This document shows positions 7,618 to 12,298 of a stretch of DNA of 18,660 bases, in pieces. Source of the stretch: Anaerolinea sp. GTDB taxonomy: Bacteria; Chloroflexota; Anaerolineae; Anaerolineales; Anaerolineaceae. Position 1 is the first letter of the stretch, and every line of letters begins with the position of its first letter. The stretch spans positions 1 to 18,660 of the forward strand of contig PNNU01000014.1 of NCBI GenBank assembly GCA_013824385.1. The letters run 5' to 3'. Both the position numbers and the translations under genes were made by a program. A model generated the notes under the pieces. That model was not told the origin of the DNA. It ran no database searches and worked only from the letters and a program-made list of their open reading frames with translations.

Positions 7618-8385
7618 TCATAACCTTTTCAACCAAGCACTAGGCCAATGGGTAACACTCTCAGATAATGAGCTTTCGTTAAACAGCCACAATGGCTGTT
7701 CCAACGTAAATTCATTACGATCTTTAGCAAATTCAATTACCGCATCTACTGGATTATTCCATTTCCATTCCAGATTGCCTCTTGGTACATCGTTAAGGTT
7801 TTTCATAATACCGTCCGTGGCAACAATGTATGAGCCTGGCGTAATCAAACTGCTATATGCTTCCAATTCTTCAAGTACGTGTTGTTTGCTATGGTTTGAA
7901 TCCAGAAATACCATGACTGATTCGCCTGGCATGATTAGATTTTTTATATGTTCCACTGTCTTTGGATCCGTGGAACTCCCCTCAATTAAGGTAACGTATG
8001 AATAAAGGGTATGTTCTTCAATAGCTCTGCGGTTATGTGGACGTATTTCAACATCAATACCTATGACTTTACCTCTGCCCATGATTTTGCAGAGGCTGGC
8101 ATAAAAAATCAGAGATCCGCCATGAGCAACGCCGGTTTCAATAATAACATCCGGTTTAACACGATAAATAACTTCCTGCGCGCGAATAATATCTTCGGGT
8201 AGCTGAATAATTGGTCTTTCTAGCCATGTGAATGTATAGGTATATTTTTGATTCCAACCAATTTTTAACCATGCTTTGGAAATCAAATCAAAGGCTTCCT
8301 CGGAATACAATTGAATATTCTTTTTACTACAATCTGGATATTCAATCATCAAAATATTTTCATTGAAATTAAGATTTAGCTTCAT
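7618..8385 (-). CDS. CmcI-like SAM-dependent methyltransferase (cephalosporin hydroxylase family)
   Basis: 255 aa from the chosen ATG at 8385, which overlaps the TGA of the epimerase gene as ATGA; this coupling is why I prefer it to the longer frame starting at 8412. The core is a Rossmann methyltransferase of the CmcI/rhamnosyl O-methyltransferase family. DVIIETGVAHGGSLIFYA (79-96) binds SAM, and GRGKVIGIDVEIRPHNR (103-119) carries the acidic end of strand 2. VMVFLDSNHSKQHV (157-170) and VATDGIM (188-194) supply probable metal and active-site residues. Family members mostly O-methylate sugars or are annotated as hydroxylases. Sitting directly after an NAD-dependent sugar epimerase, it most likely O-methylates a sugar or the growing glycan in the cytoplasm. 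Family confident, substrate unknown. Confidence 0.86.
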   Translation of the reverse strand: MKLNLNFNENILMIEYPDCSKKNIQLYSEEAFDLISKAWLKIGWNQKYTYTFTWLERPIIQLPEDIIRAQEVIYRVKPDVIIETGVAHGGSLIFYASLCKIMGRGKVIGIDVEIRPHNRRAIEEHTLYSYVTLIEGSSTDPKTVEHIKNLIMPGESVMVFLDSNHSKQHVLEELEAYSSLITPGSYIVATDGIMKNLNDVPRGNLEWKWNNPVDAVIEFAKDRNEFTLEQPLWLFNESSLSESVTHWPSAWLKRL

Positions 8386-9314
8386 AGCAGTTTGACCTGC
8401 CTTTGCCACCATTCTATTGTTTGCATGATGCCGCTTTCAATGCTATATTTCGGCTGCCAGTTAACTTCACAATTTAGTTTCTTTGTATCAGCTAATAAGA
8501 CATGAGGTTCATCTTGGCGCATAGGAATTGCTCCTAAGTGGATAAGATTGTTCTTTTGCATTTTATCTGCGATTGTGAGAATAATATCTTTTACAGTTAT
8601 TAGTTGTCCAGATGCTATATTTACAGGTCCAGTCACATTGCTTTTTAGAAGATCAACGAAAGCACTTGCCACATCTTCAACATGCATGTAGTCACGAAGC
8701 TGCGTACCAAAGGAACATTTTGCAGTTTGATCTTTTAGTAGATTATTGATAACTGATGCGACCAACCGTTTTTGATTTTCGTGAGGTCCATAAACAAAAA
8801 AAATTCTTCCCCATGCACTGCTTAAACCTGTCTCCTCTGAAAAAATATATAATAAATTCTGTAAAGCATTTTTACATTTACCGTACACAGTCGAGGGCAT
8901 AAGTGGCGTAATTTTTTCTGAACAGTAACCATAACGCCAATCATACTCGGCACAACTCCCAGCCATAACGATCCTTTGACCACCGCACTTTTGGAATGCA
9001 TACATTAAATGCAAACTTGCCTCAACCCAACGCATGCTTTCTAATGAGGTCCAAAATTCTTCAGGCTTGGCAAGCCATGCAAAGTGAAGAAGGTGTGATG
9101 GTCGCAATGACTCTATGAATTCTGAAATCTCCTTCGTATCGAGTAAATCTACCTTATGCCATTGTACTGGGAACTTGTTTTCTTTTGGAATTACCATGCC
9201 AACTGCATGTACATCGAAACCATTTGATATGAGTAAGTGTAAACTATGTTGGCCAATAAATCCAGAAGCCCCAGTAACGAGAACACGATTTACTTTTTCT
9301 GTCAATTGATTCAT
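8382..9314 (-). CDS. NAD-dependent epimerase/dehydratase (extended SDR)
   Basis: 310 aa. VLVTGASGFIG (11-21) is the nucleotide-binding G-x-x-G-x-x-G motif. S120 in MAGSCAEYDW and Y144-x3-K148 in STVYGKCKN form the SDR catalytic triad. RDYMHVEDVASAFVDLL and GPVNIASGQLITVKDII are typical of the sugar-binding half of nucleotide-sugar epimerases, dehydratases and 4-reductases. The ATG at 9314 has GGA 7 nt upstream; a longer frame from a TTG at 9326 exists but is less likely. Its stop overlaps the start of the CmcI-like gene. The IS inserted about 70 bp upstream separates it from wzt, so it may depend on a promoter near or inside the IS end. Exact sugar product cannot be told; resemblance to CDP-abequose or dTDP-6-deoxytalose synthases is only general. 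Confidence 0.88.
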   Translation of the reverse strand: MNQLTEKVNRVLVTGASGFIGQHSLHLLISNGFDVHAVGMVIPKENKFPVQWHKVDLLDTKEISEFIESLRPSHLLHFAWLAKPEEFWTSLESMRWVEASLHLMYAFQKCGGQRIVMAGSCAEYDWRYGYCSEKITPLMPSTVYGKCKNALQNLLYIFSEETGLSSAWGRIFFVYGPHENQKRLVASVINNLLKDQTAKCSFGTQLRDYMHVEDVASAFVDLLKSNVTGPVNIASGQLITVKDIILTIADKMQKNNLIHLGAIPMRQDEPHVLLADTKKLNCEVNWQPKYSIESGIMQTIEWWQRQVKLL

Positions 9315-9396
9315 GATTTTATCCAATCGGCGTTTGTTTTCATCTCATTAAATCTACATATCAGACATCACTACTGTACAGACGAGAGCTTTATCT

Positions 9397-9406
9397 TAGG
9401 AAATAG
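9397..9406 (+). repeat. IS left subterminal inverted repeat
   Basis: TAGGAAATAG, exact inverse of 10957-10966. The relic carries a degenerate version (CATGAAATAG) at 1747-1756. Confidence 0.75.
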
Positions 9407-9417
9407 GAAAAGCGTCC

Positions 9418-9446
9418 TCTAAAATGCGATATGGAAATGTTGCCAA
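9418..9446 (-). promoter_or_regulatory. Possible weak outward promoter in the IS left end
   Basis: On the minus strand, TTGGCA (9446-9441) is a good -35 match. It is followed after 17 bases by TTTAGA (9423-9418), a poor -10 matching 3 of 6 consensus positions. It points toward the epimerase and all genes left of it. The -35 is conserved in the relic, the -10 is not. Weak evidence only. Confidence 0.2.
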
Positions 9447-9478
9447 ACAAAAACCATATACACAATAAGGAGGACGCC

Positions 9479-10746
9479 ATGAAAAACGTAACAGATTCGG
9501 GACAAAAAGTAAAAAGGCAAAAAAGTTTGGTGGCACTGGAACGCGCATCCTGGATTTTGGGTATCGACGTCGGCAAGGAGAAGCTTTCCTGTGCCTGTTG
9601 CTGAAGGATGAGACGTTTCGTTGCCGGTTCGATGTTGAAGCTTCTCTGAATGGTTTCCAGATGATGCTGGAGAGAGTGAAGACGGAGACCAGAGGGGACG
9701 GGACGGTTGTGTTTGCACTGGAGCCGACGGGGCATTACTGGATGATTCTGGGCCAGTTTTTCGAAGATCACAACCAATCCTATGTGTTGGTTCATCCTTT
9801 GGTGGTCGCGCGGAGTCGCGAAGTCAAGCAACTCAACCGAGGAAAGGCCGATGCTTCCGATGCCCGTTTGATTGCAGAATTGGCTTGCCGGGGGACAGTG
9901 ACCCGGACACAGATACCGGAAGATGACTGGGCAACGATCCGCTTTTATGCCCGGGAATATATGGATCGAGAGAAAGAGATCACCCGGTAGAAGAATCGGA
10001 TGATGAGTTATCTGGAGACGACACTGCCGGGTTTCCTGGAGATTTTCCCCAAACCCCTGGGGATGAATAGCCGGGCTTGTCTGCGTTCTTTGGTCAATTT
10101 TAGAGAAGTCCTCCAGGGAAATATCGTCCAGTTTGAGAGCCAAGCTCGTAAAAGCCTCACAGGCAAAAGACTGATGACTTCCCGGGTCAGGCGTCTCTTT
10201 GAGATGCTTCAGCGGGGAGACGCCCTCGGCCTCAGGGCTGGTCGTAAAACCTTGTTCTGGAGGATTATCAACAGCCTTGATCGTTTGGAGTTGTATGAGA
10301 AGCAGCAGGATATGGCACGCAAGGCCTTGATAAATCTTTACGAGCAGTGCGAGTTCAAGCCATATCTGGATTCGGTATGGGGAACAAGCTCTCTGACCAA
10401 TTCCTTGGTGTTGGGATTGATGGGAGATCCTACTTCTTATGACACCCCGGCTTCTCTGATCAAAATGGCGGGATGCGATCCGGTGCCCAACGAGTCCGGA
10501 AAATTCAAGGGCAAGGCATCCATCTCTCATCGTGGTAGGAATCTTCTCCGCAAGACAGGAGACCGAACCTCCTTCCTTCTGGAAAAAAGAAACACCGTCT
10601 TTCGGAACTTTATGAATCATTTGACTGTGCGCCCTAAGAATAAACTTACGAAACGGCAGGCCAGGATCGCCTGTATCAACAAGTATTTTCGGATTATCTG
10701 GGTGCTCTGTAACCACCGGGTGCTCTTTAATCCGGCGTTGGCATAA
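9479..10746 (+). pseudogene. IS110-family transposase, frameshift plus in-frame stop
   Basis: The original gene encoded about 422 aa, starting at the ATG at 9479 behind a strong AAGGAGG (5 nt spacing). The first frame reads ILGIDVGKEKLSCA (first DEDD aspartate in GIDVG) and then stops at TGA 9602-9604. One missing base near 9594 would join it to the next frame as KLSCALLLKDETFR. That frame has the catalytic glutamate in ALEPTGHYW and the KADASDARLIAELA aspartates, then meets an in-frame TAG at 9988-9990 (EITR-stop-KNRMMSYLET). It continues in the same frame to 10746 with the C-terminal Tnp_20 domain: SLIKMAGCDPVPNESGKFKG, holding the catalytic serine, and ISHRGRNLLRK. Two independent lesions mean it is almost certainly inactive and any mobility would need a transposase supplied in trans. 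Apart from these lesions the protein looks full length. Confidence 0.92.
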
Positions 10747-10956
10747 ATCGTATTGCGTTTTGGAGGCACCAAGTACCGGATTGGCATGACATTCATGGAT
10801 GGTGAGCCCGTGAGCTTTGAGAGCTAAATGCTTGTGTTGCAATATGGGCAACCTTCTTTTCCCATGCTCGGATGAAGAATATTGGAGAAAATCCATAAGA
10901 TAAATCGAGGGGAAAGGATCCAACTTCATGATTGCCTATGTCCATTTTGGGCTTGA
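10747..10956 (+). ncRNA. Candidate bridge-RNA region in the IS right end
   Basis: About 210 bases without a gene between the transposase stop and the right inverted repeat. IS1111-group elements are known to carry their bridge RNA here. By hand I can fold a stem of 10749-10756 with 10839-10846 (TATTGC with GCAATA plus flanking C-G and G-U pairs), enclosing CACC (10767-10770) paired to GGTG (10801-10804). A second long hairpin has a continuous 3' arm, 10916-10929 (GGATCCAACTTCAT), pairing with ATGAAG (10872-10877), TTGG (10882-10885) and ATCC (10891-10894), with bulges of 4 and 5 nt and a 21-nt apical loop. No folding program was run, and exact RNA ends are unknown. Confidence 0.4.
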
Positions 10957-10966
10957 CTATTTCCTA
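10957..10966 (-). repeat. IS right subterminal inverted repeat
   Basis: CTATTTCCTA on the plus strand, exact inverse of 9397-9406. Its outermost three bases (10964-10966) are also the TAG stop codon of wzt on the minus strand. Confidence 0.75.
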
Positions 10967-12298
10967 TAGAATTATTTTCTTATCGGCACAATAAGAATCA
11001 TCCGCGACGTTTGATTTATTCATGCTTCTGAAACGTTCAACTTGCCACTCTAACAAAGGTCTTAACACACCACCCCACTGTCCTCCATATCCGTATCGAT
11101 GTGGATTATCGATGACTGTATCTTGCACGTTTAATGTCAGGTAGTGTTGCTTAAAAAAATGGACGATATGACCTAATTTTGGATATTCGGTTAAGGCAAA
11201 TCCAATTGTATAAGTACCTTCATTCAATAGATGCTGAGGTACATGGCATTTCGTAATGTAAATACCCGGATTAAATTTTTCCATTTTTTGAGCGTTACTA
11301 ACAAAGGCTAATATTCCTTCAGAGGTCGTGAAATGATAATTTGGAACCGCAACATATTTTATATCAGATCCGATTTGATAGACCATTTCCACAACTACTG
11401 GCTCATCTATTCGAATGGATGCTACGTTATTCCCGTTTTGATCTAGTATCCTTGCAGAAATAAACCGAGTAGTTCCAATAGCCGCAATCTCTTCTTGGTT
11501 CTCATCTTCCCGATTTATTTGCTGTTTAGTATAATGAGCAACTGCTTCTGCTGCAGTTGATTCGTAAGTAATTCCACCTTTTTCAAGGACCACTCCTTTT
11601 GTACATAGGTTACTTATAGCAGCCAAATTATGGCTCACAAAGAGGACTGTCCGGCCTTTTTTTGCCGCAGATCCCATCTTGGCCATACATTTTTTCTGAA
11701 AGCTGATGTCCCCTACTGCCAGCACCTCGTCAACTAACAGAATTTCAGTCTCTAAATGTGCCGCCACGGCAAATGCCAGCCTGACATACATGCCGCTGGA
11801 ATAGCGCTTCACGGGAGTGTCGATGAACTGTTCCACCTCGGAAAAATCCACAATATCATCGAACTTGCTTTTGATCTCCTGCCTTACCATGCCTAGGATG
11901 GCTCCATTCAGGTATATGTTTTCTCGCCCAGTTAAGTCAGGGTGAAAGCCTGTTCCTACCTCGAGGAGGCTCACTATACGGCCTTTGACTTTAATCTGTC
12001 CACTAGTGGGTGACGTAACTTGAGAAATGATCTTGAGCAGTGTGCTCTTACCCGCGCCGTTGGAACCGATAATGCCAATCACCTCGCCTTGTTGCACCTT
12101 CAGGTTCACGTCCCGTAGCGCCCAAATACATTCGCCATCACAGTTGTTGTGGTTGGCATAGCCGATCTTTTGCAGGGGGTCCGGTCTACCGCGCGTCTTT
12201 GCCCACCATCGGTTGAGGTCCTCATAAAACATGCGGGTGCTGATACTGCCCAACTGATAATATTTGCTTACATTTTCGATGGAAATAACAACAGCCAT
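10964..12298 (-). CDS. wzt: O-antigen/polysaccharide ABC exporter ATPase (Wzt) with C-terminal sugar-binding domain
   Basis: 444 aa. The ATPase domain has Walker A GSNGAGKS (78-85), the SLLEVGTGFHPDLTGRENIYLNG segment typical of polysaccharide exporters, signature YSSGMYVRLAFA (166-177), Walker B LLVDEVLAVGD (187-197) and switch SHNLAAI. A linker (about 240-265) leads to a Wzt_C-like beta-sandwich (about 265-430) ending GGVLRPLLEWQVE, the domain that recognises the modified end of the exported chain in Wzt proteins that have it. It acts with Wzm at the inner membrane, exporting undecaprenyl-linked glycan. Its ATG follows the wzm stop by one base (TAACATG). The stop codon lies in the inverted repeat of the inserted IS, so the last one or few residues (KKIIL) may differ from the ancestral end; the domain itself is complete. 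Confidence 0.93.
   Translation of the reverse strand: MAVVISIENVSKYYQLGSISTRMFYEDLNRWWAKTRGRPDPLQKIGYANHNNCDGECIWALRDVNLKVQQGEVIGIIGSNGAGKSTLLKIISQVTSPTSGQIKVKGRIVSLLEVGTGFHPDLTGRENIYLNGAILGMVRQEIKSKFDDIVDFSEVEQFIDTPVKRYSSGMYVRLAFAVAAHLETEILLVDEVLAVGDISFQKKCMAKMGSAAKKGRTVLFVSHNLAAISNLCTKGVVLEKGGITYESTAAEAVAHYTKQQINREDENQEEIAAIGTTRFISARILDQNGNNVASIRIDEPVVVEMVYQIGSDIKYVAVPNYHFTTSEGILAFVSNAQKMEKFNPGIYITKCHVPQHLLNEGTYTIGFALTEYPKLGHIVHFFKQHYLTLNVQDTVIDNPHRYGYGGQWGGVLRPLLEWQVERFRSMNKSNVADDSYCADKKIIL

What the first reader, a model, noticed from the sequence alone, without database searches (positions are those of the whole stretch)
10747..10956. Candidate bridge RNA in the IS right end with long bulged hairpin
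IS110/IS1111 recombinases are guided by a bridge RNA; in the IS1111 group it is encoded 3' of the transposase. This 210-nt region has no gene. Its most striking element is a 14-nt 3' arm (10916-10929) fully pairable with three blocks on the 5' side separated by bulges, with a 21-nt apical loop. A second domain closes with TATTGC/GCAATA. With a dead transposase beside it, a preserved guide RNA could still be used in trans.
Basis: partly seen in the sequence, partly recalled or inferred. Interest (0 to 1): 0.72.

Follow-up and report, generated by a model that had tools for sequence, protein, structure and literature searches.

The report
Guide RNA of a broken insertion sequence
The stretch beside a dead jumping gene encodes a guide ('bridge') RNA of a known kind, whose loops match the element's own end and its landing site; it is a good worked example rather than a new kind of system.

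Summary
Two relatives (L001, L002; transposase 71-73% identical) give the same two-domain fold: a closing stem (10794-10799 with 10925-10930) around a target domain (10801-10853) and a donor domain (10855-10918). Seven of 36 pairs changed on both sides. Folding energy alone proves little. In the relatives' genomes the right flank of one copy is a dispersed repeat; its empty copies give the target GAGACCT-TT-GCATAAC with core TT. The RNA holds GACCT-TT, TGCAA and AAGATAA as guides, and one guide base changes together with the window's own left flank. The window's right flank does not fit its guide. Guide order, motif and protein length (422 aa) point to the IS110 type with a 3' RNA, a combination mentioned in PMC11187229. 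The transposase is broken by a frameshift and a stop; no promoter stands out in the integrated copy, so action in trans is possible but unshown. New member of a known kind.

The parts
9393..10974 (+). Insertion sequence between its two TT cores
   Evidence: Ends by comparison with L001, L002, L003, L124, L125 and with empty sites
9384..9392 (+). Left target flank GAGAGCT plus core TT
   Evidence: Corresponds to GAGACCT-TT in relatives and in empty repeat copies
9393..9398 (+). Left end ATCTTA next to the core, complementary to the donor guide
9397..9406 (+). Left subterminal inverted repeat TAGGAAATAG
   Evidence: only TAGGAA is kept on both sides in L001
9412..9477 (+). Leader hairpin over the ribosome-binding site of the transposase gene
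   Evidence: z -3.15, 0 of 200 shuffles as good; arms at 9412-9419 and 9470-9477; arms also in L001 and L003
9479..10746 (+). Broken IS110-family transposase gene: reading frame changes before 9598, stop at 9988-9990
10794..10930 (+). Bridge RNA core with its closing stem (10794-10799 with 10925-10930)
   Evidence: covariance model built from window, L001, L002 spans 10794-10930 (by construction)
10801..10853 (+). Target-binding domain
   Evidence: Same fold predicted singly in all three sequences
10810..10819 (+). Left target guide GTGAGCTTTG; GAGCTTT matches the left flank plus core
10837..10844 (+). Right target guide TTGCAATA; TGCAA would pair TT-GCA
   Evidence: Fits L001 and L002 flanks, not the window's own right flank
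10855..10918 (+). Donor-binding domain
10871..10883 (+). Possible left donor guide; AGAAT (10876-10880) matches the right end
   Evidence: Weak: chance 0.09-0.11
10896..10904 (+). Right donor guide TAAGATAAA, complementary to the left end TTTATCTTA
10953..10958 (+). TTGACT, a -35-like box that would face TATCTT across the joined ends (17-nt spacer)
10957..10966 (-). Right subterminal inverted repeat (CTATTTCCTA on the + strand)
10975..10976 (+). Core TT at the right junction, placed by comparison with L001 and L002 (the window has TTTT here)

Best explanation
The region is the bridge RNA (seekRNA) gene of an IS110-type insertion sequence whose guide RNA lies 3' of the transposase. [quoted passage not shown] the second pairs with the joined ends of the element. 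In intact relatives the recombinase would use this RNA to excise the element as a circle, in which a promoter forms across the joined ends and drives transposase and RNA, and then to insert it in one orientation at GAGA(C/G)CT-TT-GCATAAC, the edge of a dispersed repeat. The window copy is a broken, non-autonomous copy with recognisable ends and RNA. Shown: conserved fold, compensatory changes, target and core from empty sites, RNA-DNA matches. Inferred: binding by the recombinase, transcription, circle formation, any use in trans.
For: Transposase domains PF01548 and PF02371; P0002 passes NCBIfam NF033542 'IS110 family RNA-guided transposase' (147.9 bits, cut-off 140; the window's 248-aa piece scores 65.9, below it). 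Same two domains in single folds of three sequences. 7 of 36 pairs with changes on both sides, 2 of 500 shuffles reach that. Empty target copies and TT core. Core-anchored ordered guide chain reached by 0, 2 and 3 of 1000 shuffles for L001, L002, window. Guide base C in L001/L002 and G in the window matches the flank base C (L001, L003) and G (window). Junction promoter TTGACT-17-TATCTT.
Against: Only three RNA sequences, two of them close. L001 breaks three of six closing pairs. Energies are near shuffles in the relatives. The window's right flank does not match its guide. The left donor guide is weak (chance 0.09-0.11). The reverse (IS1111) guide order also scores better than most shuffles: 35, 19 and 8 of 1000. 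Unanchored single matches are mostly ordinary. No Rfam match. No RNA data.
Confidence: 0.9

Rival explanations
1. An IS1111-type seekRNA: IS1111 transposase, long subterminal repeats, 3' RNA, top-strand guide first.
For: RNA lies 3' of the gene; the window has a 10-bp subterminal inverted repeat; the reverse guide order is not far behind in the window (8 of 1000 shuffles).
Against: 422 aa against 330-350; GCDPVPNESG lacks the L of GL-P----S(T)G; better score for bottom-strand guide first; only TAGGAA is kept as inverted repeat in L001. Definitions from PMC11187229.
Confidence: 0.07
2. Beyond being a bridge RNA gene, the window copy's RNA is still made and used in trans by an intact relative in the same cell.
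For: Ends and RNA look whole while the gene is broken; in PMC11187229 a non-coding region in trans restored circle formation and transposition of ISEc11; a protein 94% identical to the longer piece exists (P0002).
Against: No genome of the host is held, so no partner is known. Promoter-like sites are at chance number (2 found, 1.9 expected) and the junction promoter exists only in a circle. The break is recent, so survival of the RNA needs no selection.
Confidence: 0.1
3. Not an RNA gene: conserved DNA of the right end (protein-binding or remnant sequence) with chance complementarity.
For: Energy near shuffles in L001 and L002; single unanchored matches mostly ordinary.
Against: Two-sided pair changes, slid controls at 0 or 1, and the ordered guide chain at the core.
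Confidence: 0.03

Closest known systems
Bridge RNA of IS621 and the IS110 group (PMC11208160, passages read)
   Same: Target loop first, donor loop second, two guides per loop, core dinucleotide, bottom-strand target guide first
   Different: RNA is 3' of the transposase here, not 5'; transposase 422 aa against 328 aa for the IS621 chain in PDB 8wt6; core TT instead of CT
seekRNA of IS1111 members such as ISEc11 and ISPa11 (PMC11187229, parts 1-5 of 9 read)
   Same: RNA 3' of the transposase; ISPa11 also targets a dispersed repeat (REP)
   Different: Order of the target guides reversed, longer transposase, other C-terminal motif, weaker subterminal repeats
IS110-family members with a downstream non-coding region, mentioned in PMC11187229 (group marked in its Fig. 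1b; figure not seen)
   Same: IS110-type protein features with a 3' RNA
   Different: Whether this element falls in that group was not tested

Membership tests
IS110/IS1111 superfamily | DEDD (RuvC-like) domain plus PF02371 C-terminal domain | tested here: met
   PF01548 in 9598-9990 and PF02371 in 10000-10746; 3 PDB sequences matched, among them IS621 and ISCro4
Bridge RNA / seekRNA | Structured RNA in the long non-coding region with two internal loops | tested here: met
Bridge RNA / seekRNA | Loops match target and donor around a shared core | tested here: met
   in L001 and L002; in the window three of four guides fit, the left donor guide only weakly, and the right target guide fails
Bridge RNA / seekRNA | RNA is bound by the transposase and needed for movement | not testable with these tools
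   Needs experiments
IS1111 group | Non-coding region downstream of the transposase | tested here: met
   About 228 nt between stop and right core
IS1111 group | Subterminal inverted repeats, usually 11-13 bp, perfect or near-perfect | tested here: inconclusive
   10 bp in the window, 6 bp shared in L001
IS1111 group | Transposase of 330-350 aa | tested here: not met
   Intact relative P0002 has 422 aa
IS1111 group | GL-P----S(T)G motif | tested here: not met
   GCDPVPNESG in P0002 and the window
IS1111 group | Top-strand target guide precedes bottom-strand guide | tested here: not met
   Bottom-strand guide at 10810 precedes top-strand guide at 10837; scores
IS110 group | G--P----SG motif | tested here: met
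   GCDPVPNESG
IS110 group | Bottom-strand target guide precedes top-strand guide | tested here: met
   only one IS110 member (ISEc21) was shown this way in PMC11187229
IS110 group | Non-coding region upstream of the transposase (usual, not universal) | tested here: not met
   It is downstream; PMC11187229 states that some IS110 members have it downstream
IS110 group | Transposase places in the IS110 branch of a tree | not tested
   No named IS1111 reference turned up in the rows shown

The most novel reading that the evidence does not exclude
A distinct lineage in which an IS110-type enzyme keeps the IS110 guide order although its bridge RNA sits at the 3' end, and whose decayed copies persist as guide-and-ends elements that an intact relative can mobilise in trans to the edge of one dispersed repeat family.
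Probability: 0.15. Interest if true: 0.55.

Novelty: new member of a known kind. Interest (0 to 1): 0.36.

Why it matters
It gives a reading of a bridge RNA outside the well-studied elements, with target, core and three guides taken from genomes alone. It separates two traits often taken together, RNA position (3') and guide order (IS110). If borne out it is a compact test case for how the guide RNA changed ends in this family and for RNA-guided homing to genomic repeats.

Tried and rejected
My first reading of the right target guide as TGCAATA against TATTGCA (note) was cut to TGCAA once empty sites fixed the core at TT. A 10-nt match TTGGGTAATA in L002 (3 of 300 shuffles) was set aside as chance because it lies in the apical stem-loop of the donor domain and matches flank beyond the shared target. 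A second 7-nt match of the window's left flank, GAGAGCT in the apical hairpin of the target domain, and AGGAAAC in L001 and L002 were also set aside.

No similar DNA in plasmids (with the window's element, with the L001 non-coding region) or, for the repeat, in phages. Three viral-contig scans gave no relative; a fourth gave 36 loci, each 30% identical or less. Searches of 291, 291 and 389 genomes and a pattern search of 389 added no close relative; the one addition, in G344, is 29% identical. The rows visible are the same genomes. Rfam gave nothing at the thresholds used. A covariance model built from the three sequences hit only those three among 70 of the roughly 170 sources then held; duplicate, partial and G001/G002 loci were mostly left out. 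The homologue alignment of the transporter (six homologues) could not decide whether the window's right flank is original. No structure prediction was run.

Full report
What the element is. The window carries one insertion sequence between two minus-strand ORFs: an epimerase-like one at 8382-9326 and an ABC transporter with a Wzt_C domain at 10964-12298. The transposase gene reads from an ATG at 9479 (read), changes frame before 9598 and has a stop at 9988-9990. Its pieces match PF01548 and PF02371 and are 91% and 94% identical to an intact 422-aa protein, P0002. No genome is held for the window, so the host is unknown.

Relatives. The species-genome scan found 98 relatives and kept 80. Three are close: L001 (71% identical, whole), L002 (73%, 3' part) and L003 (64%, 5' part, same genome as L002). 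The other 77 are 37% identical or less. The 3' non-coding parts of the window, L001 and L002 share long identical blocks: GGTGAGCCCGTGA, TGCAATATGGGCAACCTTCTTTTCC, CTCGGATGAAGAATATTGG and AAGATAAATCGAGGGGAAA. The two domains are 86% identical between window and L001 (99 of 115), against 73% (539 of 737) for the 3' part of the coding sequence.

Fold. Each of the three sequences folded singly gives the same two domains: a target domain and a donor domain, each a stem, an internal loop and a small apical hairpin. A closing stem joins them, 10794-10799 with 10925-10930 in the window and the corresponding stem with mostly different letters in L002. RNAalifold returns the closing stem on alignment A4, whose ends I had cut at that stem. 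On A4, 97.2% of cells pair and 7 of 36 pairs changed on both sides: 5 in the closing stem, 1 in each apical hairpin. Shuffles average 3.0 such pairs, 2 of 500 reach 7, and slid structures give 0 or 1. L001 breaks three of the six closing pairs. On the uncut alignment A3 RNAalifold finds the two domains but not this closing stem, and its covariation term is about zero. With three sequences, two of them close, this is good but not massive support. Energies do not help: z -1.84, -0.44 and -0.49.

The letters are there, but its stems have pairing probability 0.0 in context and forcing its six outer pairs costs about 9 kcal/mol. Neither relative has the 3' arm or TATTGC.

Target and core. Searching the genomes of L001 and L002 with L001 showed that its right flank is a dispersed repeat: 23 places in one genome and 29 in the other with up to 2 mismatches, 0 for the reversed control pattern in both. 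Of these 52 places I read 33 with distinct sequence from fetched loci, 1 occupied and 32 empty. In the 32, positions -7 to -1 before the TT read GAGACCT, each in 29 to 32; the whole 7-mer is exact in 22 and is GAGAGCT in 1. From -8 outwards no base exceeds 19 of 31. The element thus sits 9 nt inside the edge of the repeat. Empty site GAGACCT-TT-GCATAAC, left junction GAGACCT-TT-ATCTTAGG and right junction AGAATTA-TT-GCATAAC fix a TT core. Left flanks of relatives' copies read GAGACC in 4 of 4 (L001, where the contig begins, L003, L124, L125); the RNA of the last three copies is not seen. Right flanks of L001 and L002 share TTGCATAAC, after which L002 departs from the repeat.

Guides. In the target loop L001 and L002 have GTGACCTTTG, matching GACCT-TT, and then TGCAA, complementary to TT-GCA. 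In the window the first guide is GTGAGCTTTG and the left flank GAGAGCT-TT, so guide and flank changed together; this is one change between two lineages. In the donor loop AAGATAA (TAAGATAAA in the window) is complementary to the left end TT-ATCTT, and AGAAT may match the right end. Within the loops the chance of matches this long is 0.00085, 0.043, 0.091 and 0.0022 for L001, 0.0016, 0.056, 0.092 and 0.0022 for L002, and 0.0031, 0.76, 0.11 and 0.0005 for the window, in the order left target, right target, left donor, right donor. I drew the loops after looking, so these are guides only. The stricter test, anchored on the core and ordered along the whole non-coding region, gives 0, 2 and 3 of 1000 shuffles for L001, L002 and the window; the reverse order gives 35, 19 and 8 of 1000. 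In the window part of that score comes from a right-target match outside the target loop. Unanchored longest matches were reached by 6 (window left), 172 (window right), 41 (L001 left), 194 (L001 right), 53 (L002 RNA with L003 left flank) and 3 (L002 right, set aside) of 300 shuffles.

What does not fit. The window's right flank, TT-TTCTTATCGG, does not match TGCAA, and the repeat is not in the window (0 matches with up to 3 mismatches). The joined flanks keep the transporter frame open to a double stop, but the six homologues end earlier. A poor target and a later rearrangement both remain open.

Which group. Definitions are from PMC11187229 (parts 1-5 of 9 read). IS1111 transposases are 330-350 aa with GL-P----S(T)G, subterminal repeats usually of 11-13 bp, top-strand guide first; IS110 types have G--P----SG, usually an upstream RNA, and bottom-strand guide first in the one member tested. 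Here: 422 aa, GCDPVPNESG, bottom-strand guide first, downstream RNA, inverted repeat of 10 bp in the window and 6 bp in L001. This is IS110-type with a downstream RNA, which the paper mentions for some IS110 members. No tree was built. In seven multi-copy groups of distant relatives the shared sequence runs about 410-460 nt past the matched transposase (BLAST ends, one group stopping at a contig end, and some reaching into shared target repeats), so a long 3' region is probably common in this branch. PMC11208160 (passages read) describes the two-loop design with the target loop first, as seen here.

Working. Joining the ends gives TTGACT, 17 nt, TATCTT, a promoter of the kind PMC11187229 reports for circles. 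In the integrated copy promoter-like sites are at chance number, and a leader hairpin covers the ribosome-binding site. I infer that an intact relative makes RNA and protein from its circle. The broken window copy would need a foreign transposase, and some transcript across it, to take part.

Verdict. A very probable bridge RNA gene, correctly suspected, with a wrong fold and probably a wrong subgroup label; a new member of a known kind. Apart from PMC11187229 and PMC11208160, the papers were seen only as search listings with the start of the abstract.

Noticed in passing
L011, L013, L014, L018, L056, L020 (Aneurinibacillus) and L100, L101, L103, L115 (viral contigs): Distant relatives seem to insert in ribosome-binding sites: left flank AAGGAG in 9 of 10 copies (L011 has TTGGAG), an ATG shortly after the right end in 7 of the 9 copies whose right end was read (by eye). 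Their 3' region holds AAGGAGC, AGGAATG and GGGAGG, matching flank and ends (no shuffle control).
   Followed up: partly
G001 and G002 genomes; loci L126-L169: Dispersed repeat GAGACCTTTGCATAACGCCCCCTTTTGCCCGATTACTGCGTCAGGCTCAAATTT, 23 and 29 places, with two main continuations (CAATCCTCGAAATACTC or CGGCACGAAGTGA). No Rfam match in the 4 loci scanned, no phage match. Nature unknown.
   Followed up: partly
9412-9477: Leader hairpin GCGTCCTC/GAGGACGC covers the ribosome-binding site of the transposase gene; arms also in L001 and L003. It may damp translation from read-through transcripts.
   Followed up: no
10770-10791 and 10934-10955: In the window the closing stem is predicted to be prolonged by further pairs; its non-coding region is longer (205 nt against 190 and 193). 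This explains its lower energy.
   Followed up: no
10964-10976: The right end of the element supplies the stop codon of the wzt-like transporter ORF; without the element the frame would run a few codons further to a double stop.
   Followed up: partly
10836-10852: A terminator-like site is called inside the target domain (1 found, 1.9 expected), probably just the bridge RNA stem.
   Followed up: no
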